IMG/VR virus record: IMGVR_UViG_3300006947_002434
Location: 1-57,172 of that record
DNA from: a virus
Strand: one strand, 5' to 3'
Length of the DNA: 57,172 nucleotides
Below the pieces are notes generated by a model, which was not told where the DNA came from, did no database searches, and was given only the letters and a program-made list of their open reading frames with translations. Positions 7,728-57,172 of the stretch are shown piece by piece. Each line of letters opens with the position of its first letter. Position 1 is the first letter of the stretch. Both the position numbers and the translations under genes were made by a program.

Positions 7728-7758
7728 TAAATATACGAAGAATAACGCAGGGAGGCAA
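7728..7758 (-). promoter_or_regulatory. Promoter AGTTG-N20-TATATTTA
   Basis: TTG at 7758-7756, 20-nt spacer, TATATTTA at 7735-7728, continuing AGTATAATAG. It drives the acidic 64-aa gene at 7504..7698. Confidence 0.85.
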
Positions 7759-7780
7759 CTATTCCCCTAGTTATTTTTAA

Positions 7781-8190: not shown

Positions 8191-8218
8191 AACCTTTTTT
8201 TTAATTAACTATTATACC

Positions 8219-8249
8219 TAAATATAAGAAGAAAAATGTTCATAAGCAA
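8219..8249 (-). promoter_or_regulatory. Promoter AGTTG-N20-TATATTTA
   Basis: TTG at 8249-8247, 20-nt spacer, TATATTTA at 8226-8219, continuing GGTATAATAG. It lies back-to-back with the upstream region of the plus-strand gene at 8391. Confidence 0.8.
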
Positions 8250-8282
8250 CTATCTCCCATGTTATTTTTAGACTATTTCTAA

Positions 8283-8291
8283 CTATTTATA
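8283..8291 (+). promoter_or_regulatory. CTATTTATA box upstream of the lone plus-strand gene
   Basis: CTATTTATA reads in the sense direction about 100 nt before the plus-strand ATG. The same sense-oriented box precedes several minus-strand genes (see 16970). No AGTTG-N20 promoter is seen for this gene, so this is the best candidate, but its long distance from the start weakens it. Confidence 0.3.
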
Positions 8292-8390
8292 ATACACAGC
8301 GACACCTCCGATAGACCTCGCTATTCTATCACACAGTTTCCCTTAACCTCGATCGGTAGTTATACTTAACTAACATTTAAATTTTATTTT

Positions 8391-21907: not shown

Positions 21908-22735
21908 TTATATGACTGCTCTACCAATCATTTTTTCCCAATCTTTATTTTCTCTTACTGCTTCGTTTGTTTCTAATGCTGATGTTATTACATTATTAAC
22001 TGTGCCAAGCTCTTTTGATAACTGTGTTAAAGCTCTTAAGTCTTTAGGGAAGCAATGTCCTCCAAAACCAAAGTCGCCATCTGGTCCAGGAACACTCCAA
22101 TGTGACTTACCTAACCTTCTGTCTATCGTAGCATATTCTATAACCTTATCATAATCTGCTCCTACTCTTCCACATATTTGATATATCTCATTTGCGAATG
22201 ATACTTTAGTAGCCAAGAATGCATTTGTTGTATATTTAACCATTTCAGCATAAGTAGAATTGGTCTTAATTATAGATGCTTCCGGAAATACTCTAGAATA
22301 TATTTGCTTTAATTTAGTTGAACCAGGTCTAGGACCTCCTAAAATAATTCTATCTTGCTTCTCGAAGTCTTCTACTGCATTTGCTTCTGTTAAGAATTCT
22401 GGGTTGAATATAATGTTAATATTTTCAAATAACTTATTCCATTTTTCAGTACTACCTGGTGGTACAGTTGATTTTAGAACTACTATAGCTTTAGTTTCTT
22501 TATTTAATTTTTCTAATGTTTCTAAAACTATACCTGTATGACAAGAACCGTCTCTCTCCATGGGTGTTGGTAAACATACATATATTATAGTACACTTATC
22601 TATAACATCATCAAGAGAGGCATTACATAGGGAGCTATGAAGATCGTACGTCAGTACAGTGTAGTATTTTTTAAACTTTTGATAGATAGCATTACCCACA
22701 AAACCTTGTCCAATAATTCCTATTATATTAACCAT
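21908..22735 (-). CDS. UDP-glucose/GDP-mannose dehydrogenase-like, lacking C-domain
   Basis: 275 aa from the MVNIIG start (an upstream ATG at 22747 is also in frame). The Rossmann domain has GIIGQGFVG; the middle domain has the catalytic-Cys motif FGFGGHCFPKDLRAL (about 230-244). Members normally have about 400-450 residues and a third UDP-binding domain, which is missing here. It would oxidise a nucleotide sugar to a uronate if active. It is the last gene of the sugar operon that extends up to 37.3 kb. Confidence 0.85.
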   Translation of the reverse strand: MVNIIGIIGQGFVGNAIYQKFKKYYTVLTYDLHSSLCNASLDDVIDKCTIIYVCLPTPMERDGSCHTGIVLETLEKLNKETKAIVVLKSTVPPGSTEKWNKLFENINIIFNPEFLTEANAVEDFEKQDRIILGGPRPGSTKLKQIYSRVFPEASIIKTNSTYAEMVKYTTNAFLATKVSFANEIYQICGRVGADYDKVIEYATIDRRLGKSHWSVPGPDGDFGFGGHCFPKDLRALTQLSKELGTVNNVITSALETNEAVRENKDWEKMIGRAVI

Positions 22736-22895
22736 CTGTTTCTTCATTATTAATTAATTCCATTGTTAGTGGTCCTCTGTTTCGAGAGTATTGTTCGATG
22801 GTCCATTCTACTGTTTTATCTGTTATGAACTCTTTGAATTCATGAGTTTGTGATTGTTCTCCTTCTGTTTTTATTTGAAATGTTAATTTTCTCAT
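22728..22895 (-). CDS. Small hypothetical protein (55 aa)
   Basis: The frame starts MRKLTFQIKTEGEQSQTHEF and ends LINNEETDG. It overlaps the dehydrogenase start by 8-20 nt and shares TAATG with the stop of the 223-aa gene. No family recognised; beta strand followed by helix. Confidence 0.6.
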   Translation of the reverse strand: MRKLTFQIKTEGEQSQTHEFKEFITDKTVEWTIEQYSRNRGPLTMELINNEETDG

Positions 22896-23566
22896 TATTT
22901 AAAATTTATCCAGTGTTTGCTTTGTTTGATTTGTTTCCATATAAACTCTCTACAGTTAATATTGTCTACTCTACTCAGTAAGAGATCTCCTGGGTTCATA
23001 TGGTAGTTTTTTTGAGCTTTTAAACGTTCTAGTATGTAAGGTTTTACCATAGTATCAGTTCTAAAGTGGTATTTCGGAATTATAAAATCTATTCCTGTGT
23101 GTTGAGGTAGATGTGATGACATATAGTTTATATCAAAATAATATATTTGCATTCCTTTCCAATTACCGTTACCAAATACTTCTTTTAAGAATAACTCTCC
23201 TATATCATTAGAGAAATGATCTGGGTGTTTTTGGAATGAAAGTGGAGAAAATGAATTTGATTGGAGGTCTTTTATTATTGTATCAATAATCTCCGGTATT
23301 AAAACATCTTCTGTAATTTTAATATACCTACTCTGAAGAATGTCAGATACTGTTTCTAGTACAATGCTCTCATGTCTTTCCCATTCGTCTCTTACTGGAA
23401 TGTATACTTTAATCTCAGGATCATTTTTATCTAATGATCTAAAGAATTTATCTTCTATTACTTCCCAGCCTTTATTATTGTATTTGATTTGTTTAATTGC
23501 TTGGCTAGCATTTTTAAACAATCCCATTATGTACGTCTTATCCTTACCTGCTAATCTTGATGACAT
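22895..23566 (-). CDS. Hypothetical protein of the sugar operon (223 aa)
   Basis: No secure family. VYIPVRDEWERHESIVLETV (about 54-73) and WKGMQIYYFDI (about 135-145) are compatible with an alpha/beta enzyme such as a sulfotransferase or glycan-modifying protein, but no PAPS loop can be read. It lies 2 nt from a GT2 gene in the operon. Confidence 0.5.
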   Translation of the reverse strand: MSSRLAGKDKTYIMGLFKNASQAIKQIKYNNKGWEVIEDKFFRSLDKNDPEIKVYIPVRDEWERHESIVLETVSDILQSRYIKITEDVLIPEIIDTIIKDLQSNSFSPLSFQKHPDHFSNDIGELFLKEVFGNGNWKGMQIYYFDINYMSSHLPQHTGIDFIIPKYHFRTDTMVKPYILERLKAQKNYHMNPGDLLLSRVDNINCREFIWKQIKQSKHWINFK

Positions 23567-44923: not shown

Positions 44924-44954
44924 ATAATATAAGAATAAATATTCAATTAAACAA
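44924..44954 (-). promoter_or_regulatory. Promoter AGTTG-N20-TATATTAT (leaderless) of bS21
   Basis: TTG at 44954-44952, 20-nt spacer, TATATTAT at 44931-44924; ATG at 44918. Confidence 0.85.
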
Positions 44955-44966
44955 CTTTAATAGGTG

Positions 44967-45428
44967 TTAAAATTTTTTAAATCCTACTTTTTCAAACATT
45001 TTTTGAGCTCTTATGTTCCAATCATCACAATGTAGGTATATTGTTTTGATGGATTGTTCTAAGTTATGGCAAGCCTCTCTAACAAATCTGACAGTATGTC
45101 CATCTTGTCTATCTTTGACCATAAACATATTGTATAGGTAATCTCCATCAAACCAGACATAACCTAAAGGTCTTTCTGTTCTATCTCCTATTCGTTGGTA
45201 AACGAACATTACTTGGTCTTGTTTAAAACGGTTAAGTGCTTCTTCTAAGTCCCACATATCTTTCCACTGTACTTGTGAATTGAATGAGCTAATACAAGAC
45301 TTAATTAACTTATGCCACTTATGTGCATTTCCTCCAGTAAGTTTTAAAGCAAAGAAACCGTGCGGTACTATATCACTTGCTATATTTTCTAGATCTGCTG
45401 AGTAGTATATTTTAGAGGATTTCATCAC
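44967..45428 (-). CDS. GNAT-family acetyltransferase
   Basis: 153 aa. RPLGYVWFDGDYLYNMFMVKD (beta-4/beta-5 region), TVRFVREACHNLEQS (CoA-binding helix) and NIRAQKMFEKVGFKKF (C-terminal GNAT signature). Substrate unknown; might modify host proteins. Overlaps the 77-aa gene by 17 nt. Confidence 0.8.
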   Translation of the reverse strand: MMKSSKIYYSADLENIASDIVPHGFFALKLTGGNAHKWHKLIKSCISSFNSQVQWKDMWDLEEALNRFKQDQVMFVYQRIGDRTERPLGYVWFDGDYLYNMFMVKDRQDGHTVRFVREACHNLEQSIKTIYLHCDDWNIRAQKMFEKVGFKKF

Positions 45429-45645
45429 AAGCTATCTGTAACCCTAACAATAAGGAAGCTGAATTATATTCTTTCTGCACCTCAGCCGCTCGAGTTTGAA
45501 CCTGTACAATCTTATTTGCTTTTGTAGCTTTAGCTAACAATTCCAGGATTTGATCACTTCTTCTTTCATCAGGGGATTTATCAAGGCCGAACATTTCATC
45601 TTTTTCCGCCATATTTTCATAATACTTGGTAACTGAGTCTGACAT
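45412..45645 (-). CDS. Hypothetical helical protein (77 aa)
   Basis: Charged, helical throughout (DERRSDQILELLAKATKANK). No family recognised. It is the middle of a five-gene unit behind the promoter at 45938..45968. Confidence 0.55.
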   Translation of the reverse strand: MSDSVTKYYENMAEKDEMFGLDKSPDERRSDQILELLAKATKANKIVQVQTRAAEVQKEYNSASLLLGLQIACDEIL

Positions 45646-45648
45646 AAC

Positions 45649-45762
45649 TTATTGTTTTTTATTTTTTTTGTTTAATATGACGCGATTTAATTCACGGAAT
45701 AGTAAAGACGTTGGGTTATGAGCTATATGTCGCATTTTACTTTTAGTTCCTAGTGCTTTCAT
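45649..45762 (-). CDS. Very small basic protein (37 aa)
   Basis: The frame starts MKALGTKSKMRHIAHNPTSL and ends RVILNKKNKKQ. ATGA overlap with the preceding gene supports translation. Arg/Lys-rich; RNA- or DNA-binding possible. Confidence 0.5.
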   Translation of the reverse strand: MKALGTKSKMRHIAHNPTSLLFRELNRVILNKKNKKQ

Positions 45763-45929
45763 ATTGCTTGATCCGGATAAAAATTATCGAAATCGTCTTT
45801 ATTATGTTTTTGTTTTCTTTTATATTTAGACTTATCTTCGTGATCTTTCTGTACCATTCGACGTCTCGATAGTTGAGCTAACTCCCCTACCGTGTACTTT
45901 TCTTGGCCGATTATATCTCGATTTTTCAT
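45759..45929 (-). CDS. Small basic protein (56 aa)
   Basis: The frame starts MKNRDIIGQEKYTVGELAQL, then SRRRMVQKDHEDKSKYKRKQ and an acidic end (DDFDNFYPDQAI). First gene after the promoter at 45938..45968. No family recognised. Confidence 0.6.
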   Translation of the reverse strand: MKNRDIIGQEKYTVGELAQLSRRRMVQKDHEDKSKYKRKQKHNKDDFDNFYPDQAI

Positions 45930-45937
45930 CTTATATA

Positions 45938-45968
45938 TAAATATACGAAAAAAATAGATTAGAACCTA
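45938..45968 (-). promoter_or_regulatory. Variant promoter (ACTAG-N20-TATATTTA)
   Basis: TATATTTA at 45945-45938; 20 nt upstream the -33 box reads ACTAG instead of AGTTG, exactly as at 54906. Confidence 0.65.
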
Positions 45969-46037
45969 GTATTAATGGTTTTATCTTCCAAGTCTGCCCT
46001 ATATAATGCCCGGTGGCTGTCGGAAGGTTCGTAGAAT

Positions 46038-46070
46038 TTGCGCGTGGTAGAGAGAAAAACGCCCTCGCCC
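46038..46070. repeat. GC-rich repeated element, copy 2
   Basis: Plus strand TTGCGCGTGG, T, AGAGAGAAAAACGCC and CTCGCCC; the same outer parts as the copy at 902..947, without the inserted hairpin. It lies in a 217-nt gene-free gap between the terminator at 46091 and the promoter at 45938. Confidence 0.6.
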
Positions 46071-46090
46071 GTGATTTTGTCGTAAAATAG

Positions 46091-46126
46091 AAAAAGATCT
46101 TACCGTTTTTATTGATAAGATCCTTT
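46091..46126 (-). terminator. Intrinsic terminator after the chaperonin/histone unit
   Basis: Minus-strand stem GATCTTA / TAAGATC (7 bp; extended by A-T/G-T pairs to 11) with a 13-nt loop and a T run (TTTTT, then CTATTTT). It closes the groS-groL-histone unit. Confidence 0.75.
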
Positions 46127-46146
46127 ACTTTATTAACTACTTGTTT

Positions 46147-46317
46147 TTAACTCTTATCTTCGTTCACTGAAGCTTTTCTGTAATCTGTGCATAATTTTTT
46201 AACTGCTCCAATTGCTGCTCTTGCTCTTCGTTGAGAAACTTTAGTTGATCCGTTGTGTTCAGTTTCAAATTCTCCAAAGTGTTCTACGATTTGTTCAAAT
46301 AATTCTTGTTTAGTCAT
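46147..46317 (-). CDS. Histone H1-like small basic protein
   Basis: 56 aa. VSQRRARAAIGAVKKLCTDYRKASV (about 27-51) resembles the RARKA...EIKKL...YRK(A/V)S repeat of short Hc1/histone-like proteins in Bacteroidota and marine phages. Probably DNA-binding. It follows groEL directly, with a 19-nt gap. Confidence 0.7.
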   Translation of the reverse strand: MTKQELFEQIVEHFGEFETEHNGSTKVSQRRARAAIGAVKKLCTDYRKASVNEDKS

Positions 46318-46336
46318 AATCTTAATTTTAATTTAA

Positions 46337-47995
46337 TTATTGCATCATCATACTAGGATCTATTCCTGGCATACTTGGTGCGTTGTTTTCTTCTTTAATA
46401 TTAGTTATTAGTGCTTCAGTGGTTAACATTGTACCAGCGACACTAGCTGCATTTTCTAAAGCTAATCTAGTTACTTTAGTAGGATCTATCACTCCCTCGT
46501 CAAACATATTTACATACTGACCTGTTCTAGTATTATATCCATGCCATTCATCTTTACTGGTGGTAACTATTTTGGAAATCTCTACAACCTTATCTCTTGC
46601 AATTCCTGCATTAGTTAAGATGGTGCAAAATGGTGTACCACAAGCTTCAAGTAATGTAGTAAAGCCTAGTGCTTCGCTTTCATTATCTGTATAACTCCAT
46701 AATTCCGGATCGTCATATAGCTCTTTACTCGCTCTTAGTAATGCTACTCCTCCTCCAGGTAAGAAACCTTCTTCTAAGGCTGCTTTTGTTGCGTGAAGAG
46801 CGTCGTCTACACGATCCTTTTTTTCTTTCATTTCAACTTCAGTCATTCCACCTACATATACGATAGCTACTCCTCCTACGAATTTTGCTAATCTATCTTG
46901 TAAAGTTTCTTTCTCGTATGGTGATTTAGTTTCATCTACTTGAGTCTGTATCTCTGATACTCTTTGTTCGATTGATGCTTGGTCTCCATTAGCGTCAATA
47001 ATAGTTGTGTTATCTTTACCAACAGTTACTTTCTTAGCGGAACCTAACCACTCAGGTTTATATTTATCTAATCTCATTCCTTTCTCTCCTGAGATTACTG
47101 TACCTCCTGTTAATGTAGCGATATCTTCTAGCATAGCTTTCTTTCTGTCTCCAAATTCAGGAGATTTAACTGCTACACACCCTAAGATACCTCTCATTTT
47201 ATTTACTACTAGAGTAGAAAGTGCTTCACCGTCTATATCATCTGCAATAATCAGTAATGATTTATTCTTATTAGAGCATCCTTCTAATATAGGAAGTAAT
47301 TCTTTTACTTGCGTAAGTTTCTTATCTGTGATTAGTATTAACGGATTTTGAAGGACAGCTTGCATAGAACTATTATCAGTAACAAAATATGGAGACTTAT
47401 AACCTCTGTTGAATTGCATTCCTTCAACTGTTTCTAAATACGTATCTCCTGTTTTCGACTCTTCAATCGTAACGACACCGTCACGACCTACTTTATCCAT
47501 GGCTGTGGAAATCAGTTCCCCTACTTCGGAATCATTATTAGCTGAAATGGTAGCTATTTGTTTAAGCTGCCCTTCATCCGTAATTTCTTTAGATTGAAGC
47601 TCTAATGCATCAATTACTTTAACAGTTGCTTTATCAATACCTCTTTTAAGGTCTACTAAATTAACTGTATTGTCTTTAGATGCTTCTAATCCTTGTTGGT
47701 AAATTGATGCTGCTAACAAGGTAGATGTTGTTGTACCATCTCCTGCTGCGTCTGCTGTTTTAATCGAAGCCTGTTTAACTAACTGTGCTCCGATATTTTC
47801 TTCAATATCTTCTAATTCGATACCTTTGGCTACTGTAACTCCATCCTTAGATGATATAGGAAAGCCTTGCTTTTGCTCTATAATTACATTACGGCCTGAT
47901 GGCCCTAAAGTGGCTGTTACTGCCTTTGATAACTTTTCTACTCCGGTTACTAGTTTTAATCTAGCTTCATCGGAAAATAAAATTTTATTGCTCAT
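46337..47995 (-). CDS. groL: Chaperonin GroEL
   Basis: 552 aa, full length for Gro[15 protein letters not shown] (apical/equatorial N-part), [16 protein letters not shown] (ATP site), [12 protein letters not shown] (GGG motif). The C-terminus ends [10 protein letters not shown] without a long GGM tail. With the phage GroES it would fold large phage proteins. Only 1 nt separates it from groES. Confidence 0.95.
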
Positions 47996-47996
47996 A

Positions 47997-48302
47997 TTAC
48001 TCTTTTGATTTTTTAATTACTGCTAAAATTTCTCTATCTTGTGCTATTAGGTACTCTTCTCCTTCGAAGTCAATTCGCATAGAACCTATTTTAGGAATTA
48101 GTACTACATCTCCTACTTTACAAGACCTAACGGAAATTAATTTGCCGTAATCGGATATTCGGCCTGGGCCTATAGCTACTACTGTGCCCATTTCTGGTTT
48201 TTCTTTTCCCATATCAGGTACTACGATTGAACCGTACATTTGTTCTCCATCGTCGATAGATTTTATTATAATTCTATCATTACAAGGATTTAATTTTTTC
48301 AT
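47997..48302 (-). CDS. groS: Co-chaperonin GroES
   Basis: 101 aa: NPCNDRIIIKSIDDGEQ start, a mobile loop (YGSIVVPDMGKEKPEMGTVV) and VGDVVLIPKIGSMRIDFEGEEYLIAQDRE, the GroES beta-barrel. It caps the co-encoded GroEL. The promoter at 48324 lies 21 nt upstream. Confidence 0.93.
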   Translation of the reverse strand: MKKLNPCNDRIIIKSIDDGEQMYGSIVVPDMGKEKPEMGTVVAIGPGRISDYGKLISVRSCKVGDVVLIPKIGSMRIDFEGEEYLIAQDREILAVIKKSKE

Positions 48303-48323
48303 ATTTAGATAACGTTTATTTAA

Positions 48324-48354
48324 TTAATATAGTAAAAATAAATGAGGGATCCAA
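48324..48354 (-). promoter_or_regulatory. Promoter AGTTG-N20-TATATTAA of groES-groEL
   Basis: TTG at 48354-48352, 20-nt spacer, TATATTAA at 48331-48324; ATG at 48302. Confidence 0.8.
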
Positions 48355-48370
48355 CTCCAAATGGATTTAT

Positions 48371-48808
48371 TTAGCTAATTTTCAAAGTTCTTGGCTCTGA
48401 TCCTTTAGCAAAAGGGATTATAACTTGTAATAGGCCGTTTTTGAAGTCGGCTGTTGCTTTTGAAAGATTAAATCTACTATCAATCTTCCAACCTAAGTTG
48501 AATGATCGTTTAGCAATACCTTTATGTATGTACTCAGGTGATTTACACTCACAGTCTGAGTTACATTGACAATCGGAACTGTTTTTGTCGTAATTAACTC
48601 TAATTATGTTACCTTCAATCTCTATTTCAATATCTTCTTTTGGAATTCCGGTACAGGCAATGTCTAAGCCTAAGCCGTTTTCTTTTTCGTAAATATCTAC
48701 TGGGTGAGGTAATTTGGATTCTGCTAACGGTTGGTAATGGTTAGCTGTTTGCAAAAAATTGCGGACTAAAATATCGAACGGATTACGTTCTAAAAATAAT
48801 GTACTCAT
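48371..48808 (-). CDS. Small heat-shock protein (Hsp20) with cysteine-rich insert
   Basis: 145 aa. The alpha-crystallin domain has PVDIYEKENGLGLDIACTGI (about 36-55), the beta-strand pairs, FNLSKATADFKNGLLQVIIP (about 114-133) and a short C-tail. In place of a loop there is a cysteine-rich segment, SSDCQCNSDCECKSPEY (about 77-93), with four Cys in CxC pairs, which could bind metal or respond to redox. Binds unfolding proteins alongside GroEL/ES. Confidence 0.88.
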   Translation of the reverse strand: MSTLFLERNPFDILVRNFLQTANHYQPLAESKLPHPVDIYEKENGLGLDIACTGIPKEDIEIEIEGNIIRVNYDKNSSDCQCNSDCECKSPEYIHKGIAKRSFNLGWKIDSRFNLSKATADFKNGLLQVIIPFAKGSEPRTLKIS

Positions 48809-48820
48809 ATCATTAAAAAT

Positions 48821-48886
48821 TTATGATGCCCTAAGGTCATCGGTTAAAAAAAATTGTGAATAATCTCTCTGGAGTAGATCCTTCAT
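48821..48886 (-). CDS. Possible 21-aa leader peptide upstream of hsp20
   Basis: The frame MKDLLQRDYSQFFLTDDLRA(S) starts 4 nt behind the -7 box of the promoter at 48891, as in the other leaderless genes, and ends 12 nt before the hsp20 start. It may be a real small gene or a leader controlling hsp20. Weak evidence. Confidence 0.35.
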   Translation of the reverse strand: MKDLLQRDYSQFFLTDDLRAS

Positions 48887-48890
48887 ATTA

Positions 48891-48921
48891 TAAATATACG
48901 AAGAAAATACTTCTTAGGCAA
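48891..48921 (-). promoter_or_regulatory. Promoter AGTTG-N20-TATATTTA of hsp20
   Basis: TTG at 48921-48919, 20-nt spacer, TATATTTA at 48898-48891. The distance to the hsp20 ATG is 82 nt. Confidence 0.85.
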
Positions 48922-49872
48922 CTATCCCCAAGAAAAGTTCTGTCCCATGTGTCCCCATTGTGCTGTTTTTGCGAATTTAGGTGTTTTTAAATCTAATAAT
49001 TTTACTATTCCATTTGGAGATAGATCATAATCTTCTATAAACATCTCTCTTCCATCTACAAATGCTGTTGCCTGTAAAGGTTCATTATGTCCAATTGCAT
49101 AAGCTAATGTTACATATACTTCTTTAGCATTATATTTCTTAAGATAGTCTACTGCTACTCTTCTTGCTGCATATGCTCCTGATCTATCTACTTTAGAACT
49201 ATCCTTTCCGGAAAATGCTCCTCCTCCTAATGGTATACGAGGTCCGTAATTATCTACTGCTAATTTTCTACCAGTTAATCCTGTATCTGCTGCAAAGCCT
49301 CCTATTGACCACTCCCCAGCTGGATTAATATGTAATGCTTCAATGTGGTACTGAGGATATCTACTGAAGAATCCTCTAACAAATCCATCTAACATTTCAG
49401 TTGGTGCATTTTGGAATGAACAAACAACTCTAAGTGAGTTGCCATCCATCGTAACTTGGGTTTTACCATCGTATGGATACATCGCGTACATAGCCTTACA
49501 TAAATTTCTAGCTAAGTAATATTCTTGAGGAACCAATTCCTCGTTTTCGTTACAGGCATATCCTATCATAATACCTTGATCTCCAGCTCCTCCAGTATCT
49601 ACTCCTTGAGATATTTCAGGACTCTGTCTGACTATGTTAGTCTGTATTCCTATTTCCTCTCCGTATACCTGTCTTACAATAGTTGGGATTTCAACATATG
49701 CTGTTGTTGTTAACTCTCCTGTTACAGAAATAATTCCATGTCCTCCCATTGTTTCTACTGCTACTCTTGCATTTGGGTCTTGTTCCAAGCATGCATCTAA
49801 TATTGCATCTGAAATCCTATCACATATTTTATCCGGGTGATTCGGTGTAATGCACTCTGCTGTTCTAATCAT
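48922..49872 (-). CDS. metK: S-adenosylmethionine synthetase, compact
   Basis: 316 aa versus about 380-400 in bacteria. NHPDKICDRISDAILDACLE (ATP/Met site), GAGDQGIMIGYA (about 95-106) and GGGAFSGKDSSKVDRSGAYAAR (about 217-238) are all present. Makes SAM from methionine and ATP. It can feed the phage methyltransferases (3060, 12778, 32457, SET at 12372). The promoter of hsp20 overlaps its 3' end. Confidence 0.93.
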   Translation of the reverse strand: MIRTAECITPNHPDKICDRISDAILDACLEQDPNARVAVETMGGHGIISVTGELTTTAYVEIPTIVRQVYGEEIGIQTNIVRQSPEISQGVDTGGAGDQGIMIGYACNENEELVPQEYYLARNLCKAMYAMYPYDGKTQVTMDGNSLRVVCSFQNAPTEMLDGFVRGFFSRYPQYHIEALHINPAGEWSIGGFAADTGLTGRKLAVDNYGPRIPLGGGAFSGKDSSKVDRSGAYAARRVAVDYLKKYNAKEVYVTLAYAIGHNEPLQATAFVDGREMFIEDYDLSPNGIVKLLDLKTPKFAKTAQWGHMGQNFSWG

Positions 49873-49880
49873 ACTTTTTT

Positions 49881-50204
49881 TTATTTAATTCTTCCATACT
49901 TAATAGAAGATTTTATTGGTGTTTTATCTATATTCAAAAGAGGAATATATTTACGTATTAATTCTCCTTCTCTTGTTTCAATTTCTCTTAAATCACAATC
50001 ATATGGTTTAATTATCCAAAAGAATTTCCAATCTTTTCCTACCTGACTTAGTTTATTTCTAAAGTTAGTACCAATGTAATTCTTCTGTTTCCAATTTCTA
50101 TGATTATACTCTAATATATGTAAAGGAAGAGTTGAAGAACCAATATACATTAACAATTTCATCTCATTTAATACTCCATACACGCCTCGTTGTTTAATAT
50201 CCAT
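49881..50204 (-). CDS. GIY-YIG endonuclease
   Basis: 107 aa. GVYGVLNEMKLLMYIGSST (GVY...MYIGSS, about 7-25), helix-borne catalytic E (EGELIRKYIPLLN, about 79-91). Free-standing homing-type nuclease between metK and the DNA polymerase gene; it may have entered as a mobile gene. Confidence 0.8.
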   Translation of the reverse strand: MDIKQRGVYGVLNEMKLLMYIGSSTLPLHILEYNHRNWKQKNYIGTNFRNKLSQVGKDWKFFWIIKPYDCDLREIETREGELIRKYIPLLNIDKTPIKSSIKYGRIK

Positions 50205-50215
50205 CTTTTTAGCTA

Positions 50216-52555
50216 TTAATGGCCTTCTTGCCAGTTATTCGCTATTTCTGGTGGTGCTTTTAAGGTTACACCTTCTAATTCAGTAGTCGTTTCCATAAGC
50301 TCTTGTACATAGGGTGCAAATCTATCTGCATCTTCTTCTGCAATATTAATAATCAATTGATCATGAACCTGTGCTTGAACAATTGCATCTATCCCTAGTT
50401 CTTTAGCCTTTAAGTTAATCTTGACTGCAGCTCTATTTACCACTGATGCTGCTAATGACTGAAGTTGAAAGTTTAAACAGTTATTAAGTCCGTTTCTAAA
50501 GTCTCTATATACCTGTAATACTTGAGCTCTACCATATTGAGGTTCTAAGTTCTTTCTAAATCTCCAATCTAAGAATTGATCTTGATACTTAGTGTAGATC
50601 TTCTGCACTTTAGGTAAATGCCTTACTCTACCAACAGAATTTTTAATATAACCATGAGCTTTAACTTGAAGTCTAGAATTTTCTCTCCATTCAGCTAAGC
50701 CTGGGAATCCTTCTAAGTAACCTTTTATAAGTCCTTCAGCAGTCTTTTGGTCTACTCCTAATGTCATCTTAAGAGCAAATGCTTCCATTCCGTATGCTAC
50801 CCCTAATGAATAGGCTTTAGCTTTATTACGTGCTGTTACATCTAGTTTCTTAAGGTAGTTATCTGCTTTCTTATCTGCTGATACTCCGTTAGGAAATCTT
50901 TTTCTTTGTTCGTTTAGTTTTTCAGTTTGAATAGCAACATAAGAATAAAAATCCCATCCGTTGTTAAAGATTTCTTGTAATTTTTTGTCTCCTGATACTG
51001 ATGCAAAGCAATGTGGTTCTAAAGATTCGTAATCACAATCGATTACTTTACGTCCTTTTCCAGCAATTAGAAATGCTCTTACTATATTATTATACCTAAT
51101 GATAATTGGAGCATCTTCTCCTTCTTCTTTAGTTTTAGGTAATTGTTGAGCATCTGATCCATACCTACCTGATACAGTACCGTTCTGCTTAAAGTAAAAG
51201 TAGTATCTGCCATCTTCAGACCTATCTATAAACCTATCTACATAAGTAGATTTAATCTTTAGTAGTTTATTATAGATACGTAGATTCTCTGCCCAAGCAT
51301 AAGTCTTTGATAATACCTCCAACATGCTCATATCGAATTGATCTTGTCCTTTTCTTGTTTGAGACTTAGCTTTAATACCCATATACTTAAAACAGATTTC
51401 TCCTAAATGTTTTTTGGATTGAATATTAATATGGTCTCCGTCATTAGATTCTTTCCACATCGACATAGAAATACGAGCTACTTCTAAACTATCTAATAAT
51501 TCAATATCTCCAGTCTTTAAGAACTCTTTAACAGGTCCGTCATCTAAAGCTTCTACATGTTTTGATGTAATAGAAAACTTACCAGTCTTTTCACTCTTAG
51601 GTAAAGATAGAGAATACCTTATAGCTAGTTGTTGTGCCCAATTACCTTTATGAGAGGGGGGGTAAGTAGACATAGATGTATCTACAACCCATTTCTTAGC
51701 TTCTGAAGTATCTAGTAGGCTCTTCATTACTATTTTTTTATTCTTCGCTAAATCTACTGTGATGTTTTTATGAGTTTCATGAAGTAGGTCCATATCTAGG
51801 TCTACTCCAGTAGCTTCCATAGGTACAGTAACTTCACGATACACAGGCATTACCTCTTCTTCAAAGAAGAATTTTTCCAAGCCTTCATCTCTAAGTTTAC
51901 CCAAATATAAATTACAAATACGAAGGGTAAGGTCAGTATCAGCAGCAGCGTACTTAGAAAGTATGTCAAGATCTGCTTTATATATTTCATACTTAAGTTT
52001 AGTAGTTTCTCCACCATTTTTCTTTATTGATTCTTTTAGTTCTATTTGCTCTTGGTTGGCTGCTTCTTCTACGTTCAGGCCTAGAGCTTCCTGATTCATA
52101 ATAGCGATTGATTTTAGGCCAAATGGATTTCCGAATCCAAAGGCTCCTTCTTCATAGACAGTATGAACAAGTAAACCAGTATCAACCCATATATCTTCTA
52201 TAAGGTCAACTCCGAAGTAATTTTTTATGAACTGAACATCAAAGGAAGCATTATGAAATACTAGTTTCTTTCCTTTAAGTAGTTTAAGTAGGTTTTTGGA
52301 GATTACTTCTGTAGATTGTCCATCTATCGTCTGTACTTGAAGTTCATCGGCTTCAAAATTATATACTAAAGTGGGTAAGTAAAACCCTACACCTTCATCT
52401 CCGGAAACAGACCATCCTACGATTTTATTCTTTCGAGGATTTAGCCCAGTCGTCTCAGTATCGACTGCTATTACATCTGAGTCAGTAATGTGTTTGTATA
52501 ATAGATTTAAAGTCTCTTTATCTTGGACTGTGTAATATTTTTTTTCTAACTCCAT
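50216..52555 (-). CDS. polA: DNA polymerase I (family A) with 3'-5' exonuclease
   Basis: 779 aa from MELEKKYY. A 19-aa upstream extension would encode the promoter at 52582..52612 and is rejected. Exonuclease motif VDTETTGL (D32, E34) and HNASFDVQFI. Polymerase motif A DCDYESLEPH, motif B RNKAKAYSLGVAYG, motif C QVHDQL. It is the phage replicative polymerase. No 5'-3' exonuclease domain. Motif C uses Q where E is usual. Confidence 0.93.
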   Translation of the reverse strand: MELEKKYYTVQDKETLNLLYKHITDSDVIAVDTETTGLNPRKNKIVGWSVSGDEGVGFYLPTLVYNFEADELQVQTIDGQSTEVISKNLLKLLKGKKLVFHNASFDVQFIKNYFGVDLIEDIWVDTGLLVHTVYEEGAFGFGNPFGLKSIAIMNQEALGLNVEEAANQEQIELKESIKKNGGETTKLKYEIYKADLDILSKYAAADTDLTLRICNLYLGKLRDEGLEKFFFEEEVMPVYREVTVPMEATGVDLDMDLLHETHKNITVDLAKNKKIVMKSLLDTSEAKKWVVDTSMSTYPPSHKGNWAQQLAIRYSLSLPKSEKTGKFSITSKHVEALDDGPVKEFLKTGDIELLDSLEVARISMSMWKESNDGDHINIQSKKHLGEICFKYMGIKAKSQTRKGQDQFDMSMLEVLSKTYAWAENLRIYNKLLKIKSTYVDRFIDRSEDGRYYFYFKQNGTVSGRYGSDAQQLPKTKEEGEDAPIIIRYNNIVRAFLIAGKGRKVIDCDYESLEPHCFASVSGDKKLQEIFNNGWDFYSYVAIQTEKLNEQRKRFPNGVSADKKADNYLKKLDVTARNKAKAYSLGVAYGMEAFALKMTLGVDQKTAEGLIKGYLEGFPGLAEWRENSRLQVKAHGYIKNSVGRVRHLPKVQKIYTKYQDQFLDWRFRKNLEPQYGRAQVLQVYRDFRNGLNNCLNFQLQSLAASVVNRAAVKINLKAKELGIDAIVQAQVHDQLIINIAEEDADRFAPYVQELMETTTELEGVTLKAPPEIANNWQEGH

Positions 52556-52581
52556 AACCGTTTTATCAATTTTATATACTA

Positions 52582-52612
52582 TAAATATACGAAAAATATT
52601 GCAGGAAAACAA
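52582..52612 (-). promoter_or_regulatory. Promoter AGTTG-N20-TATATTTA of DNA polymerase
   Basis: TTG at 52612-52610, 20-nt spacer, TATATTTA at 52589-52582; ATG at 52555. Confidence 0.85.
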
Positions 52613-52620
52613 CTGTACTC

Positions 52621-52878
52621 TTAGATTTCTCCGTAAAGATCAAACTTTTCTACTTCTGGTTCTTTAACGATAATTTCCTGTTCTTTGATAGCATATAACT
52701 TTCCTTTTAGAGGAGATAATTTGTAATCTCCTTTAAATTTAGTTTTTCGAAGATAAGCTGTTAATGTAGGAACTAATCCTTCTATAATCTCTTCCTTATC
52801 TATTTCTAACTCCCAATTATCTCCTGGTGGGATCCTTTCTGCTATAAGAATATACTCTTCTTTAATTTTTATATCCAT
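52621..52878 (-). CDS. Small hypothetical protein (85 aa)
   Basis: Acidic/lysine-rich, alpha/beta small protein. It shares one base with the start of the queF-containing unit (stop/start TAATG). No family recognised. Confidence 0.6.
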   Translation of the reverse strand: MDIKIKEEYILIAERIPPGDNWELEIDKEEIIEGLVPTLTAYLRKTKFKGDYKLSPLKGKLYAIKEQEIIVKEPEVEKFDLYGEI

Positions 52879-53786
52879 TACTGTCTCAGTGTTTTTTGAA
52901 TTATAAATTCCGGGTTAGTAAAGAATTCGGGTATTAGGTAGGTATGGGTTGCTCTAATTGGATTAATATCTAAACCTCCTCTTCGGGTATAAAGACATGC
53001 TACCATTAAATTCTCAGGTTCAAATGCATCAGAAAGGTGTTTATACACCATTTCACATATCTCTTCGTGAAAATGACTTACAGTTCTGTGGCTAACAATA
53101 TATTTAGCAATAGATGCTGGTGTTGGTAGGTTTTTGCCTTTTATTCTAATGTAAATATCTCCCCAGTCGGGTTGGTTTGTAACTCTACAGTTAGACCTTA
53201 ATAAGTTAGAAGTCCATTTGATCTCTGATGTTTGATTATGTTCTTCTACGTCTAATTGATTTGAATCTGATTCGAATGCTGTAAAATCTATAGTATCTAA
53301 ATCTGTCAATTCAGCAATATCTTCATAACTATCAAATGACATTGGTTCTGTTTCTAAATCAGAACCATAAAATGTTACTGTAGTTGTAGTGTCTAGTAGT
53401 TCATCTAAATCTCTCTTTACTCTTGCTTCAATACCTGTAATACAGTCTGCTGCTGTATCGCCGATACGAGTCATATTAAATGAGTTTAGGTATAGTTTTA
53501 TAGACTTAGATTCTACGTGAAATTCAGATGAGGCATTACATACAATCTTCAACATACCTGCCACAGGTTGTCCTTTAGTTGTGATTGCCGATACTTCGTA
53601 AGCATTCCAAGTATCTACCCCTACAAATTCAGATCCAGTTAATCCATAACCTTGTCTATTTAAATTTCTAGGTATTTTCACTAGTAGTTCAGGAGAGTAG
53701 GTATCCTTATATCCAGATCCTCCTACCTTTCCTAAATGTTTTGATGCAATATCTATTACTTCTTGATAATTTTTTACTTTGCTCAT
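52878..53786 (-). CDS. queF: NADPH-dependent preQ0 reductase QueF (long form)
   Basis: 302 aa, bimodular type. VESKSIKLYLNSF (QueF substrate motif, about 91-103), LLRSNCRVTNQPDWG (C200 nucleophile, D207), HFHEEICEMVYKHL (H240/E241) and YTRRGGLDINPIR (about 266-278). It reduces 7-cyano-7-deazaguanine (preQ0) to preQ1 with NADPH. In phages this feeds DNA 7-deazaguanine modification. PreQ0 must come from the host or from genes outside the window. Confidence 0.95.
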   Translation of the reverse strand: MSKVKNYQEVIDIASKHLGKVGGSGYKDTYSPELLVKIPRNLNRQGYGLTGSEFVGVDTWNAYEVSAITTKGQPVAGMLKIVCNASSEFHVESKSIKLYLNSFNMTRIGDTAADCITGIEARVKRDLDELLDTTTTVTFYGSDLETEPMSFDSYEDIAELTDLDTIDFTAFESDSNQLDVEEHNQTSEIKWTSNLLRSNCRVTNQPDWGDIYIRIKGKNLPTPASIAKYIVSHRTVSHFHEEICEMVYKHLSDAFEPENLMVACLYTRRGGLDINPIRATHTYLIPEFFTNPEFIIQKTLRQ

Positions 53787-53790
53787 TTTA

Positions 53791-54366
53791 TTATTTTATT
53801 ATATAATCTATCCACTTTGTTCCTTTAGTATCTATATTAGGAAATTCAAACACTCTCTCTGTATTCCCAATAGTAATAGTTTTTCTGAATCCTGATGGGA
53901 CTGTTGCACCAGTTGGTAATACTTCTAACTCACCTTCAAATAGAACGTCTACTCTTACCTTAACTTCTTCACCAAAAAAGTTTGAAGCATCTCTTTCAAA
54001 AGTTTCTAATCTACTCCATTGACCTCTATTTAATCCCTCATGCTGTAAAGCTGAGTTTAGGTATGAGAATGTTTTAAGTAACATCTCTTTATTACAACTA
54101 AAGGCTGCTGCTGGTGCTAGATGACCTTTATCGTATATATTGCCTTTATAATCATCATCATCAGAAGTTCTAATACCTTCTGGTTCCCAAAAATCCATTC
54201 CTACTCTTGATGCTTTTCCGTTAGGACACTGTACTACATATTCAACCCATAATGGCTGTTCTTTGAATTGACTATACTCTACCCTAAATATATCTGTTTC
54301 AACTATTTGACTTATCCCACTAGTAGATGAAAATAGTAGTATTAATATTAATGTTAGGTTTTTCAT
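53791..54366 (-). CDS. Secreted DNA/RNA non-specific endonuclease (NUC1)
   Basis: 191 aa with a signal peptide (about 1-19). YDKGHLAPAAAFSCNKEMLL (about 78-97; DRGH-type H), TFSYLNSALQHEGLNRGQWSRLE (about 99-121; N for Mg) match the beta-beta-alpha-metal NucA/EndoG fold. Periplasmic or external DNA degradation. It lies between QueF and a P-loop kinase; it may kill incoming competitor DNA or scavenge nucleotides. Confidence 0.88.
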   Translation of the reverse strand: MKNLTLILILLFSSTSGISQIVETDIFRVEYSQFKEQPLWVEYVVQCPNGKASRVGMDFWEPEGIRTSDDDDYKGNIYDKGHLAPAAAFSCNKEMLLKTFSYLNSALQHEGLNRGQWSRLETFERDASNFFGEEVKVRVDVLFEGELEVLPTGATVPSGFRKTITIGNTERVFEFPNIDTKGTKWIDYIIK

Positions 54367-54371
54367 ATTAT

Positions 54372-54890
54372 TTAATTTATAAATTTTAGTATTTGCTCTA
54401 CCCTTTGCATAGGAGAGCCCGTTACCGTCAAATAGGGCTGACGTATACCTTTTAATACCTCCACAAATTTAGTATCTATTTTCTTTCTCCACTTTTCATC
54501 TACACTCCTAGTGCCATCATCTACTGAATCAAATTCAATAGGAGAGTATATGTAATGGGTATATTCGTTTTTTATTCTATTCCAAGTATCTTCTATATAT
54601 CGATAAGTTATATCTTCTATATCTGCCATATAAGCAGAATAAACTACAACATCCATAAAACATCTATCTAATACTTGATTATGAGATTGAAGTAAAGCTT
54701 CTAAATGAAAACAACTGATAGCTAATTGAGTAGCATCTGTTCCTTTTTCATTAATAGGAAATCCATAATTACCTACAGTTCTAGTAGATTCATTTACGAA
54801 TTCGTATTTAGGTAACCTACCTTTTAATAACTCATATACAGTAGTTTTACCAGTACTGCTTGCTCCAACTAATGCTATTCTTTTTATCAC
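54372..54890 (-). CDS. P-loop kinase (NadR/AAA_28-like)
   Basis: 172 aa. GASSTGKTT (Walker A), LDRCFMDVVVYSAYM (Walker B-type, about 77-91) and basic lid residues (DEKWRKKID). Similar to NadR/AAA_28 kinases that act on nicotinamide riboside or deoxynucleosides. Substrate unknown. Behind the variant promoter at 54906. Confidence 0.75.
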   Translation of the reverse strand: MIKRIALVGASSTGKTTVYELLKGRLPKYEFVNESTRTVGNYGFPINEKGTDATQLAISCFHLEALLQSHNQVLDRCFMDVVVYSAYMADIEDITYRYIEDTWNRIKNEYTHYIYSPIEFDSVDDGTRSVDEKWRKKIDTKFVEVLKGIRQPYLTVTGSPMQRVEQILKFIN

Positions 54891-54905
54891 TATATAACTT
54901 TTATT

Positions 54906-54936
54906 TTAATATACGAAAATTATTTGTGAATACCTA
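54906..54936 (-). promoter_or_regulatory. Variant promoter (ACTAG-N20-TATATTAA)
   Basis: TATATTAA at 54913-54906 with ACTAG at the -33 place, the same variant as at 45938. It lies across the 3' end of the formyltransferase gene and faces 54890. Confidence 0.6.
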
Positions 54937-55468
54937 GTAATTTAGTTAAAAATTCATCCCAGAGATATAAAGATCTATCTTTTAAAGTTTTCCACATATC
55001 TTCTTCTGTAATTCTCCAAGCATTAAAATATATTTCTTTTAGTACTTTTCCTTCATCTACCCCAGCAGTAACTTTATGTATAACACAACCCATTACCTTA
55101 TGTTTAGCTTTAAATGCTCTCATTTGAGGATCTTTACCTTTAAGTTCTGGGTATTTAGTAATTAATCCTGGGTGGCCATTATATATCTCATGGGTAATGC
55201 ATACTTCTTTAGGTATTATTCTTAACCAACCATGCAGAGTAATAAAAGCTTGTGGTATATACTGTAATACTTCTAAATAATCATCTTCTGTAGGGTTATT
55301 ATTAAATGTAAAATAACCTTTCTCTTCTATTCTAGGGTCTATAGTTCTAAGGTGATCAGGTCTATCATTAGTAATAATTCTATCAGGCCATCTGCCAAGT
55401 CTTTCTGCTATGTCTGCTATTTCTGCTCCTGTCTGGCTAAAGAATGCTATCCAAAATTTAGTTTCCAT
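54920..55468 (-). CDS. dpdN: Formyltransferase, DpdN-like
   Basis: 182 aa. The formyl_trans_N core has LHGWLRIIPKEV (about 78-89), IYNGHPGLI (N97, H99) and GVDEGKVL (D138), the Asn-His-Asp triad of PurN-type 10-formyl-THF formyltransferases. It overlaps the dpdA gene by 11 nt. In phages, a formyltransferase of this type was proposed (DpdN) to turn dPreQ1 in DNA into the N-formyl form. The alternative, ordinary PurN purine synthesis, is less likely given the neighbours. Confidence 0.85.
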   Translation of the reverse strand: METKFWIAFFSQTGAEIADIAERLGRWPDRIITNDRPDHLRTIDPRIEEKGYFTFNNNPTEDDYLEVLQYIPQAFITLHGWLRIIPKEVCITHEIYNGHPGLITKYPELKGKDPQMRAFKAKHKVMGCVIHKVTAGVDEGKVLKEIYFNAWRITEEDMWKTLKDRSLYLWDEFLTKLLGIHK

Positions 55469-56252
55469 TAGTAAACCATTTAAATTTCTGTAAATTAGTC
55501 ATTATCTTATTACAATCTTCAACTTTATAATTTATTAATTCAAATAACTTTTGAGATTCCTTATCCCAAAGTCCTTCAGAACCATATTCAATTCCCTTTA
55601 TGCCGTGTACTATTGGATTGGAAGTATCTAAAGAATATATCCAATCATAATTAGAATTCTTATAGAAGCTAAATTCTTGAGGTAATCCACAACCTAGAAG
55701 GTGATGAGGTTTGTCAGTATTTATAATACCGTCTCTGAGTAGATCTCCTAGTAGCTTAACACGTCCTAACATCCAACTAACATACTTGTTAGGATGAGGA
55801 CAAGACTCTATGTAATACGAATAATCAAAAGATATTGCTATCATATCTACATTTGCAGATCTATCCATATACTTATAACAGTTTACTATTTCATCATATG
55901 TTTTACCTTGTACTACTCCAATCATCTTCCCAGGCAAACCCTTGTGATCAAATAACCAAGAATGCATTTGAGTTTGAGTCTTTTCACTATTTTCCAATGC
56001 ATCTGGGACTATGTACCAAGTAGGTTTTAAATGTTTAATCCATTTAGCAAACTCTTCAGCATCAAATGCTTCTTCTAATTCGAATATTGAATTATCTAAA
56101 ATAACTTCACGTCCATTCGAAATTGCAGTTTTGAATTGCTGCAAGTATTCTTTATCTTCTTCAAACAAATGTACTAAAGCATAATCATAATCAGTATACT
56201 GTTGAACTTTATTAAATATACTTTTAGGACTTTCGTGTGCTATTTTTATCAT
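55458..56252 (-). CDS. dpdA: DNA guanine transglycosylase DpdA-like (TGT family)
   Basis: 264 aa, shorter than tRNA TGT (about 380). ILDNSIFELEEAF (D53), VPDAL (D84), GVVQGKT (Q115), HHLLGCG (about 183-189) and YSLDTS (D209, in the nucleophile position) follow the TGT barrel order. No zinc-binding CxC..H is seen at the C-terminus, as in phage DpdA forms. It would exchange guanine in phage DNA for a 7-deazaguanine base such as preQ1. Confidence 0.88.
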   Translation of the reverse strand: MIKIAHESPKSIFNKVQQYTDYDYALVHLFEEDKEYLQQFKTAISNGREVILDNSIFELEEAFDAEEFAKWIKHLKPTWYIVPDALENSEKTQTQMHSWLFDHKGLPGKMIGVVQGKTYDEIVNCYKYMDRSANVDMIAISFDYSYYIESCPHPNKYVSWMLGRVKLLGDLLRDGIINTDKPHHLLGCGLPQEFSFYKNSNYDWIYSLDTSNPIVHGIKGIEYGSEGLWDKESQKLFELINYKVEDCNKIMTNLQKFKWFTNGN

Positions 56253-56464
56253 AACTTATTTAGGTTCCCAAGTTCTTTTGTTAAGTCATTTAACGCAGTA
56301 AATATTTCGGTCTCTGCTTTCTGGACTGTATTAGTAATATTATCTAATGCAGGTTGTTGCTCTGCAACTGTCTCTACTAAATATTGTTTAACTACACTAT
56401 AAGGAATCATATCAGTTTTCATTGATTCTATATAAACTACGTGTTCTTCTAATTTAAGGCTCAT
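56249..56464 (-). CDS. Small coiled-coil protein (71 aa)
   Basis: Helical, heptad-like, starts MSLKLEEHVVYIESMKTDMI. ATGA overlap with dpdA and a one-base overlap with the MazG-like gene. Unknown. Confidence 0.6.
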   Translation of the reverse strand: MSLKLEEHVVYIESMKTDMIPYSVVKQYLVETVAEQQPALDNITNTVQKAETEIFTALNDLTKELGNLNKL

Positions 56465-57030
56465 TATATAATTGCTTCAGGTTGGTGAAATTTCTTTAAC
56501 TCATCAGTTGTAAAGAATTGAGTAAGGTCTGGTCTATAGTAGTTGATACTTTTCATTACTTTTCTGTCTCTTGTTCTATAGACAATATACCTTCCTTCCT
56601 CAACTTTCTCAAAATGACAGGCCTCACTTTGCTCCTGACTTCTTTCGCTGACGGTCTGTATGGCTTCTTTTTTAGTTTTACAAGCTTTACTAAGATTACT
56701 TCCTTGTACTTCTTGATAGGCTGGCCATATCTTGTCTTTAAGGCCATGTAACATAGTACCGTTCCCAAGGGAAACATAAGCAATATCGCACAAAGCGTCC
56801 AGAATTTCCACAATGTCGCCTCGTTCGCAAGCTTCTCTATATTCTTCAAGTTCTTCGAGGATAAAGTCGTATACGAATTGCCATTCTTTTTTAATCGGAA
56901 TAGTGGGCTCATAATTGTTAGGTTTATTAAATACGTCGTTAAATTTTTCTACTTCTGATACGAATGGAACGTAATCGTTAACCCATACGTGATCTGCTTC
57001 ATCTGGAAATAATTTTAATTGTTTACTCAT
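56464..57030 (-). CDS. MazG/PRA-PH-like nucleotide pyrophosphohydrolase
   Basis: 188 aa. WQFVYDFILEELEEYREACE (about 50-69) and EILDALCDIAYVSLG (about 75-89) give the E-x-x-E and E-x-x-D metal motifs of the all-alpha NTP pyrophosphatase fold. QGSNLSKACKTKKEA is the typical continuation in phage enzymes. The C-terminal arm (KVEEGRYIVYRTRDRKVM) is a second small module. May clean or adjust nucleotide pools near replication and DNA-modification genes. Confidence 0.82.
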   Translation of the reverse strand: MSKQLKLFPDEADHVWVNDYVPFVSEVEKFNDVFNKPNNYEPTIPIKKEWQFVYDFILEELEEYREACERGDIVEILDALCDIAYVSLGNGTMLHGLKDKIWPAYQEVQGSNLSKACKTKKEAIQTVSERSQEQSEACHFEKVEEGRYIVYRTRDRKVMKSINYYRPDLTQFFTTDELKKFHQPEAII

Positions 57031-57139
57031 TATTTTTAATTTTTTCTAATACTATATCAATTTTCTTTTCTATTACTTGTAATCTTTTATTTATTTTATA
57101 TGATTGATTAATTACAGCAATTTGTCTTTTTATATTCAT
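57023..57139 (-). CDS. Very small coiled-coil protein (38 aa)
   Basis: The frame starts MNIKRQIAVINQSYKINKRL and ends KIDIVLEKIKNNE, overlapping the MazG-like gene by 8 nt. Basic and helical. Unknown. Confidence 0.5.
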   Translation of the reverse strand: MNIKRQIAVINQSYKINKRLQVIEKKIDIVLEKIKNNE

Positions 57140-57172
57140 TATTTTTAATTTTTATACTTATATGCTAATTTA

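What the first reader, a model, noticed from the sequence alone, without database searches (positions are those of the whole stretch)
52878..56252. QueF-DpdN-DpdA cassette predicts N-formylated preQ1 in the phage DNA
The sequence shows a long-form QueF, a small formyltransferase with the NxH...D triad, and a TGT-like DpdA. The last two overlap by 11 nt. The published phage pathway has QueF giving preQ1, DpdA inserting it, and DpdN (dPreQ1 formyltransferase) making 7-(formylamino)methyl-7-deazaguanine. The whole end of that pathway is here, with a NUC1 nuclease and a P-loop kinase between the parts.
Basis: partly seen in the sequence, partly recalled or inferred. Interest (0 to 1): 0.85.

Follow-up and report, generated by a model that had tools for sequence, protein, structure and literature searches.

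The report
Phage cassette for N-formylated 7-deazaguanine DNA
This stretch of a Bacteroidota-type phage carries the last genes of a known pathway that swaps guanine in DNA for a decorated 7-deazaguanine, here predicted to end in a formyl group; in related phages the formyl-adding gene is replaced by other amine-acylating enzymes, which suggests the phages can change the tag.

Summary
On the minus strand lie a TGT-fold DpdA (55458-56252), a PurN-like formyltransferase (54920-55468, 11 nt overlap), a deoxynucleoside-kinase-fold protein (54372-54890), a NUC1 nuclease (53791-54366) and long-form QueF (52878-53786). The window breaks off inside folE; a 99.3% identical contig carries FolE, QueE, QueD and QueC just upstream. 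Closest named phage: Flavobacterium phage immuto_2-6A, same order. The formyltransferase keeps the catalytic N/H/D triad but has lost the GAR-binding residues of PurN in essentially all of 66 members, forms its own clade, and sits between DpdA and QueF. Among 113 distinct DpdA loci with room, QueF is present in 113, the formyltransferase in 108. The nuclease is variable and not part of the pathway; the kinase is a frequent partner, found beside DpdA even in Campylobacter phages without QueF/DpdN. New here: 7 loci lack DpdN; 5 (three separate designs) carry a GNAT-type acyltransferase beside DpdA (one with FkbH) versus 0 of 82 DpdN-bearing contigs. The slot looks like an interchangeable amine-acylation step. 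No chemistry was tested.

The parts
55458..56252 (-). dpdA: 264 aa TGT-fold DNA-guanine transglycosylase
   Evidence: 75% identical to the annotated DpdA of Flavobacterium phage immuto; AlphaFold model matches TGT and DpdA 7ui4; D53, D84, Q115, D209 kept in 57-58 of 58 relatives
54920..55468 (-). dpdN-like N-formyltransferase, 182 aa, N97-x-H99...D138 triad
   Evidence: Formyl_trans_N; triad invariant; PurN GAR-contact residues lost; own clade 100/100; directly follows DpdA in 79/79 loci where both neighbours can be read
54372..54890 (-). P-loop kinase (AAA_28), deoxynucleoside-kinase fold, conserved DpdA partner of unknown role
   Evidence: Foldseek best hits deoxyadenosine, deoxyguanosine and deoxycytidine kinases, thymidylate kinase, NadR; present in 97/113 DpdA loci and next to DpdA in Campylobacter phages
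53791..54366 (-). NUC1-type DNA/RNA non-specific endonuclease with a hydrophobic, signal-peptide-like N-terminus; variable passenger
   Evidence: Endonuclease_NS 1.9e-22; replaced by a TNase, moved, or absent in relatives
52878..53786 (-). queF, long form, preQ0 reductase, 302 aa
   Evidence: QueF_N and QueF domains; solved QueF 3bp1 E 7.6e-43; catalytic and NADPH residues in 54/54 relatives
56464..57030 (-). MazG-like nucleotide pyrophosphohydrolase upstream of dpdA
   Evidence: PRA-PH 8e-10, PHROG nucleotide pyrophosphohydrolase; within 2.5 kb upstream of DpdA in 60/97 loci
57145..57172 (-). last codons of folE, cut by the window end
   Evidence: window 44924-57172 aligns at 99.3% to L003, where FolE spans 7614-8324; GTP_cyclohydroI 6.5e-43

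Best explanation
The cassette is the distal half of a phage 7-deazaguanine DNA-modification pathway. FolE, QueD, QueE and QueC (just beyond the window) make preQ0 from GTP; QueF reduces preQ0 to preQ1; DpdA exchanges guanine for preQ1; and the DpdN-type enzyme transfers a formyl group from 10-formyl-THF to the aminomethyl group, giving 7-(formylamino)methyl-7-deazaguanine. The likely benefit is resistance to host restriction. Shown by sequence and structure: the family of each enzyme, the catalytic residues, and the gene linkage. Inferred: the acceptor, the order of formylation and insertion, and that the final base sits in phage DNA.
For: QueF present in 113/113 and DpdN in 108/113 distinct DpdA loci with 3 kb or more downstream; no DpdN-bearing locus with room lacked QueF, the enzyme that makes the amine. 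DpdN keeps N106/H108/D144 of PurN (66/66) but has N13->E (66/66), A86->H (66/66) and E173->S (61/66); own clade; no member found in bacterial genomes with the patterns used. DpdA has the fold of TGT and of the DNA preQ0 insertase with its acidic residues kept. QueF residues complete. FolE, QueD, QueE and QueC all in a 99.3% identical contig. Isolated relative with the same order. In DpdN-less relatives the missing enzyme is mostly replaced by other acyltransferases, as expected if the slot acylates an amine. Published: phages with QueF and DpdA carry dPreQ1 (PMC6884629; PMC12028318, 15% of dG).
Against: No chemistry. NCBIfam QueF score is below its curated cut-off (239 against 293), and phage QueF may be hard to tell from QueF-L (PMC6884629). 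DpdA lacks the CxCxxC zinc motif of TGT and is short, so its substrate could be something other than polymer DNA. DpdA and DpdN are not basic (median net charge -10 and -3), which gives no support for DNA as the direct substrate. The source paper for DpdN could not be read; its content rests on memory.
Confidence: 0.72

Rival explanations
1. The swap is made at the nucleotide level, before replication: a MazG-like enzyme turns dGTP into dGMP, the compact DpdA exchanges the base of a free deoxynucleotide or deoxynucleoside, the deoxynucleoside-kinase-fold protein rephosphorylates it, and the phage family A polymerase incorporates it, in analogy to the Z-genome pathway.
For: The kinase fold is closest to deoxynucleoside and thymidylate kinases and is present in 97/113 DpdA loci, fused to the acyltransferase in two, and beside DpdA in Campylobacter phages that lack QueF/DpdN next to it. 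MazG-like gene upstream in 60/97, PolA downstream. DpdA is acidic and compact. PMC6884629 itself mentions a modified dGTP as a possibility for Campylobacter phages.
Against: Kinase absent from 15 DpdN-bearing loci and from L297. The same kinase family occurs in Streptomyces phages where no dpdA is annotated nearby. MazG and kinases are common phage genes. DpdA resembles enzymes that act on polymers.
Confidence: 0.15
2. The formyltransferase is a phage PurN (GAR formyltransferase) that boosts purine synthesis, unrelated to the base modification.
For: Best curated family is PurN (43 bits); immuto homologue annotated as phosphoribosylglycinamide formyltransferase; cyanophages carry PurN homologues.
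Against: Far below the PurN cut-off (43 against 150 bits); GAR-contact residues lost in the whole family; separate clade; DpdA-DpdN-(kinase)-QueF neighbourhood.
Confidence: 0.06
3. The enzymes modify tRNA (queuosine-type) rather than phage DNA, and DpdA is a divergent TGT.
For: Fold equally close to TGT; some phages carry 7-deazaguanine genes that may only boost host tRNA queuosine (PMC6884629).
Against: Also matches DNA-specific DpdA 7ui4; 75% identical to a protein annotated as DNA guanine transglycosylase; a formylated preQ1 would be expected to block later queuosine steps (inference).
Confidence: 0.05

Closest known systems
Flavobacterium phage vB_FspM_immuto_2-6A (Immutovirus) 7-deazaguanine cluster
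   Same: Same gene order DpdA - formyltransferase - kinase - QueF - PolA - GroES/GroEL, with FolE, QueE, QueD, QueC upstream; DpdA 75%, QueF 62%, formyltransferase 50% identical
   Different: No NUC1 nuclease between kinase and QueF; small ORF between DpdA and the formyltransferase; carries tRNA genes; SAM synthetase not detected in the stretch compared
DpdN / fdPreQ1 pathway (Cui et al. 2023, NAR gkad657; cited in PMC12783734, text not held)
   Same: Formyltransferase beside DpdA and QueF, predicted product 7-(formylamino)methyl-7-deazaguanine (recalled from the abstract)
   Different: No difference established; kinase linkage and slot replacement are not something I know from that paper, and I could not check
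PurN (GAR formyltransferase)
   Same: Formyl_trans_N domain, catalytic Asn/His/Asp
   Different: Phosphate-loop Asn13 is Glu, Glu173 is Ser, Ala86 is His; separate clade
Campylobacter Firehammervirus DpdA (CP220 group)
   Same: DpdA 42-44% identical, kinase homologue directly downstream, QueC elsewhere in the genome
   Different: No QueF hit in the collection search and no DpdN hit; HD-domain/P-loop gene upstream

Membership tests
DpdN (dPreQ1 formyltransferase) | Formyl_trans_N domain with N-x-H...D catalytic triad | tested here: met
   Pfam 45 bits; N97, H99, D138 invariant in 53 relatives
DpdN (dPreQ1 formyltransferase) | Genomic linkage to DpdA and to the enzyme that makes the amine (QueF) | tested here: met
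DpdN (dPreQ1 formyltransferase) | Formylates preQ1 or dPreQ1; product in DNA | not testable with these tools
   needs enzyme assay and LC-MS
PurN | Curated family score | tested here: not met
   TIGR00639 43.3 bits, cut-off 150.1
PurN | GAR-contact residues (N13, E173 in E. coli numbering; role from own knowledge) | tested here: not met
   N13->E 66/66, E173->S 61/66; both invariant in 8 PurN references
DpdA / TGT superfamily | TGT (beta/alpha) barrel fold | tested here: met
   2ash E 8.7e-8, 7ui4 (DpdA) E 1.2e-6
DpdA / TGT superfamily | Catalytic and base-binding acidic residues | tested here: inconclusive
   Conserved D53, D84, Q115, D209 sit where the TGT residues are expected; mapping from a weak profile alignment, not from superposed coordinates
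DpdA / TGT superfamily | CxCxxC...H zinc site of TGT | tested here: not met
   absent from the 264 aa sequence; whether solved DpdA needs it was not checked
DpdA3 or another DpdA subfamily | Placement in the published subfamily tree | not tested
   source paper not held
QueF (nitrile reductase, long form) | QueF_N + QueF domains, Cys190/Asp197/His229/Glu230 and NADPH motif | tested here: met
   (54/54)
QueF (nitrile reductase, long form) | NCBIfam equivalog cut-off (a curated threshold, not a mechanistic feature) | tested here: not met
   TIGR03138 239.1 bits, cut-off 293.45

The most novel reading that the evidence does not exclude
The gene slot held by DpdN is an interchangeable amine-acylation position. 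In relatives that lack DpdN it is filled by a kinase-GNAT fusion (L145, L146), a separate GNAT (L214), an FkbH-GNAT protein plus a methylmalonyl-CoA-epimerase-like protein (L319, L399), or possibly an amidoligase-like protein plus a weak GNAT (L400). These phages would carry N-acyl-preQ1 bases other than formyl (acetyl, glyceryl or other), modifications I know of in no published list, and the deoxynucleoside-kinase-fold partner would be a further, unrecognised component of the system.
Probability: 0.45. Interest if true: 0.78.

Novelty: new member of a known kind. Interest (0 to 1): 0.58.

Why it matters
It extends a rare DNA modification from one isolated phage genus to a large, diverse set of uncultured phages, and gives sequence criteria (Glu for Asn13, Ser for Glu173, His for Ala86) that separate DpdN from PurN, with which it is misannotated. 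The replacement of DpdN by other acyltransferases suggests that phages change the outermost group on preQ1 while keeping the rest of the pathway, as would be expected in an arms race with modification-dependent restriction. It names concrete contigs and predicted masses to look for, and a kinase whose role is open.

Tried and rejected
Nuclease as pathway member: rejected, because the slot holds NUC1, a TNase or nothing, and NUC1 can lie elsewhere. PurN: rejected. Acetyl reading from the kinase-GNAT fusion alone: at first weakened because kinase+GNAT pairs also occur with no DpdA, QueF or preQ0-pathway gene found on their short contigs (L164, L165, L268, L269); restored by the separate GNAT of L214, the FkbH-GNAT of L319/L399 and the control of 82 DpdN-bearing contigs. 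The amidoligase of L400 is below cut-off (13.4 against 22 bits) and its GNAT too (17.9 against 23.6): not counted. L297 has neither DpdN nor a replacement. A first neighbourhood count missed overlapping DpdN frames; corrected. hhalign of DpdA with E. coli TGT alone was weak (5% probability); the fold search was decisive. Literature: the DpdN paper and the 2024 review are not held; searches for DpdN, fdPreQ1 and formylamino found nothing usable. The genome-contig scan for DpdN found no relative.
Full report
OBSERVATION. The window is a 57,172-base virus fragment from IMG/VR. On its minus strand, in transcription order, lie a MazG-like gene (56464-57030), a 71-codon ORF, dpdA (55458-56252), the formyltransferase (54920-55468), a P-loop kinase (54372-54890), a NUC1-type nuclease (53791-54366), queF (52878-53786), an 85-codon ORF, a family A DNA polymerase, SAM synthetase, an Hsp20-like ORF and GroES (the last two read from their sequences), and GroEL.

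THE WINDOW IS CUT, THE PATHWAY IS NOT. Contig L003 aligns to window 44924-57172 at 99.3% identity and continues: the window ends inside the last codons of folE, and L003 carries FolE, QueE, QueD and QueC upstream. FolE, QueD and QueC have significant Pfam hits; QueE is read from a weak Radical_SAM hit and 78% identity to the annotated QueE of immuto. A near-identical phage therefore encodes preQ0 synthesis itself, and the window's phage most likely does too. The closest named phage is Flavobacterium phage vB_FspM_immuto_2-6A with the same order.

EACH ENZYME. QueF: both domains, best solved match QueF 3bp1; Cys190, Asp197, His229, Glu230 and the NADPH motif are kept in 54 of 54 non-redundant relatives, which argues for a reductase rather than a QueF-L type enzyme. 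DpdA: invisible to Pfam and NCBIfam, but an AlphaFold model from 58 sequences (pLDDT 94.6) matches tRNA-guanine transglycosylases and the solved DNA preQ0 insertase DpdA, 7ui4. Formyltransferase: Formyl_trans_N; against eight PurN references the catalytic N106/H108/D144 are kept in all 66 family members, while N13 is Glu in 66, A86 is His in 66 and E173 is Ser in 61. That N13 and E173 contact GAR in E. coli PurN is from own knowledge of the published structures. The family is one clade with full support, though only 11 reference sequences were used.

GENE LINKAGE. DpdN was searched for first; then DpdA, independently of DpdN, in four further scans. Of 145 distinct DpdA loci, 113 have at least 3 kb downstream: QueF is near DpdA in 113, DpdN in 108, the kinase in 97. 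Each scan kept only the best 80 loci, so rarer arrangements may be under-sampled. In the loci of the DpdN scan the order DpdA-DpdN-kinase holds in 79 of 79 where both neighbours are readable; in a more distant group the kinase is missing. That DpdN never appears without the amine-making enzyme is what the proposed chemistry requires. The nuclease is not conserved in place.

THE KINASE. Its model (pLDDT 91.7) is closest to deoxyadenosine, deoxyguanosine and deoxycytidine kinases, thymidylate kinase and NadR. A homologue sits directly after DpdA in Campylobacter phage CP220 and relatives. CP220 carries QueC, and no QueF or DpdN was found in these phages by the collection searches. Relatives of the kinase also occur in Streptomyces phages where no dpdA is annotated nearby. 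Its role is open; a nucleotide-level base swap resembling the Z-genome logic is a rival explanation at about 0.15.

THE SLOT IS SWAPPED. Seven loci have DpdA but no DpdN, and no Formyl_trans domain anywhere on their (partial) contigs; QueF is present in six, and L399 ends before the place where QueF would lie. L145 and L146: the kinase is fused to a GNAT acetyltransferase domain (over the Pfam cut-off in L145; the 77% identical L146 is below it). L214: a separate GNAT gene overlaps the start of dpdA (25.9 bits, cut-off 23.6). L319 and L399 (nearly identical slot proteins, 503 of 508 residues): an FkbH-domain protein with a GNAT domain (FkbH 151.2, cut-off 146.65; GNAT 44.1, cut-off 20.7) followed by a methylmalonyl-CoA-epimerase-like protein (below its NCBIfam cut-off, over that of Glyoxalase_4), then the kinase and, in L319, QueF. 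L400: an amidoligase-like and a GNAT-like ORF, both below cut-off. L297: DpdA directly followed by QueF, no replacement. As a control, 47 DpdN-bearing contigs searched with two GNAT models and 35 more with one had no GNAT within 10 kb of DpdA; distances were worked out by hand from the contig coordinates. Five of seven against none of 82 would be p about 5e-7 if loci were independent; they are not: the five represent three separate designs. The first three loci (L145, L146, L214) prompted the test, so the later scans, which added L319/L399 as positive, L400 as unclear and L297 as negative, are the fairer check.

HOW IT WORKS, AND HOW SURE. Most likely: GTP to preQ0 (FolE, QueD, QueE, QueC), preQ0 to preQ1 (QueF), preQ1 into DNA (DpdA), amine formylated by DpdN using 10-formyl-THF. 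Shown: gene families, residues, linkage. Inferred: acceptor, order of steps, DNA as the final place, protection from restriction. Published data on related systems support the first part: phages with QueF-type genes and DpdA have dPreQ1 (PMC6884629; PMC12028318, 15% of dG), and a dpdA deletion in phage CAjan restores restriction (PMC6884629). The name DpdN and the product fdPreQ1 are from Cui et al. 2023 as I recall its abstract; the paper exists (reference 13 in PMC12783734) but was not readable here.

VERDICT. The part that goes beyond the known is in the relatives: an acylation slot that appears to be exchanged, and a deoxynucleoside-kinase-fold partner.

Noticed in passing
window 46337-49872: The phage encodes GroEL, GroES, an Hsp20-like protein and an S-adenosylmethionine synthetase next to its DNA polymerase; GroEL recurs in most relatives, SAM synthetase in few.
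   Followed up: partly
L199:6001-7657: Two dpdA genes in tandem; the second has lost the presumed catalytic residues (D53N, Q115H, D209I), perhaps a non-catalytic partner.
   Followed up: no
L164, L165, L268, L269: Kinase plus small GNAT gene pairs in other phage contigs without DpdA, QueF or preQ0-pathway genes detected in the stretch held.
   Followed up: partly
L244:4862-7355 (Campylobacter phage CP220): DpdA flanked by an HD-domain/P-loop gene upstream and the kinase homologue downstream, all annotated as hypothetical.
   Followed up: partly
window 53791-54366; L004:11081-11452: Two unrelated nucleases (NUC1, staphylococcal-nuclease type) occupy the same slot between kinase and QueF in different relatives.
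   Followed up: partly
L001:20951-21478 and 22007-22927; PHROG 5949: Likely misannotations in public records: the formyltransferase as PurN, and QueF as GTP cyclohydrolase in RefSeq and PHROGs.
   Followed up: yes
L003:7149-7589: A phosphoribosyltransferase-like gene beside FolE in most relatives, a possible extra pathway or salvage gene.
   Followed up: no
L399:2841-3848: A radical SAM protein inserted directly upstream of the small ORF and DpdA in one FkbH-type locus.
   Followed up: no
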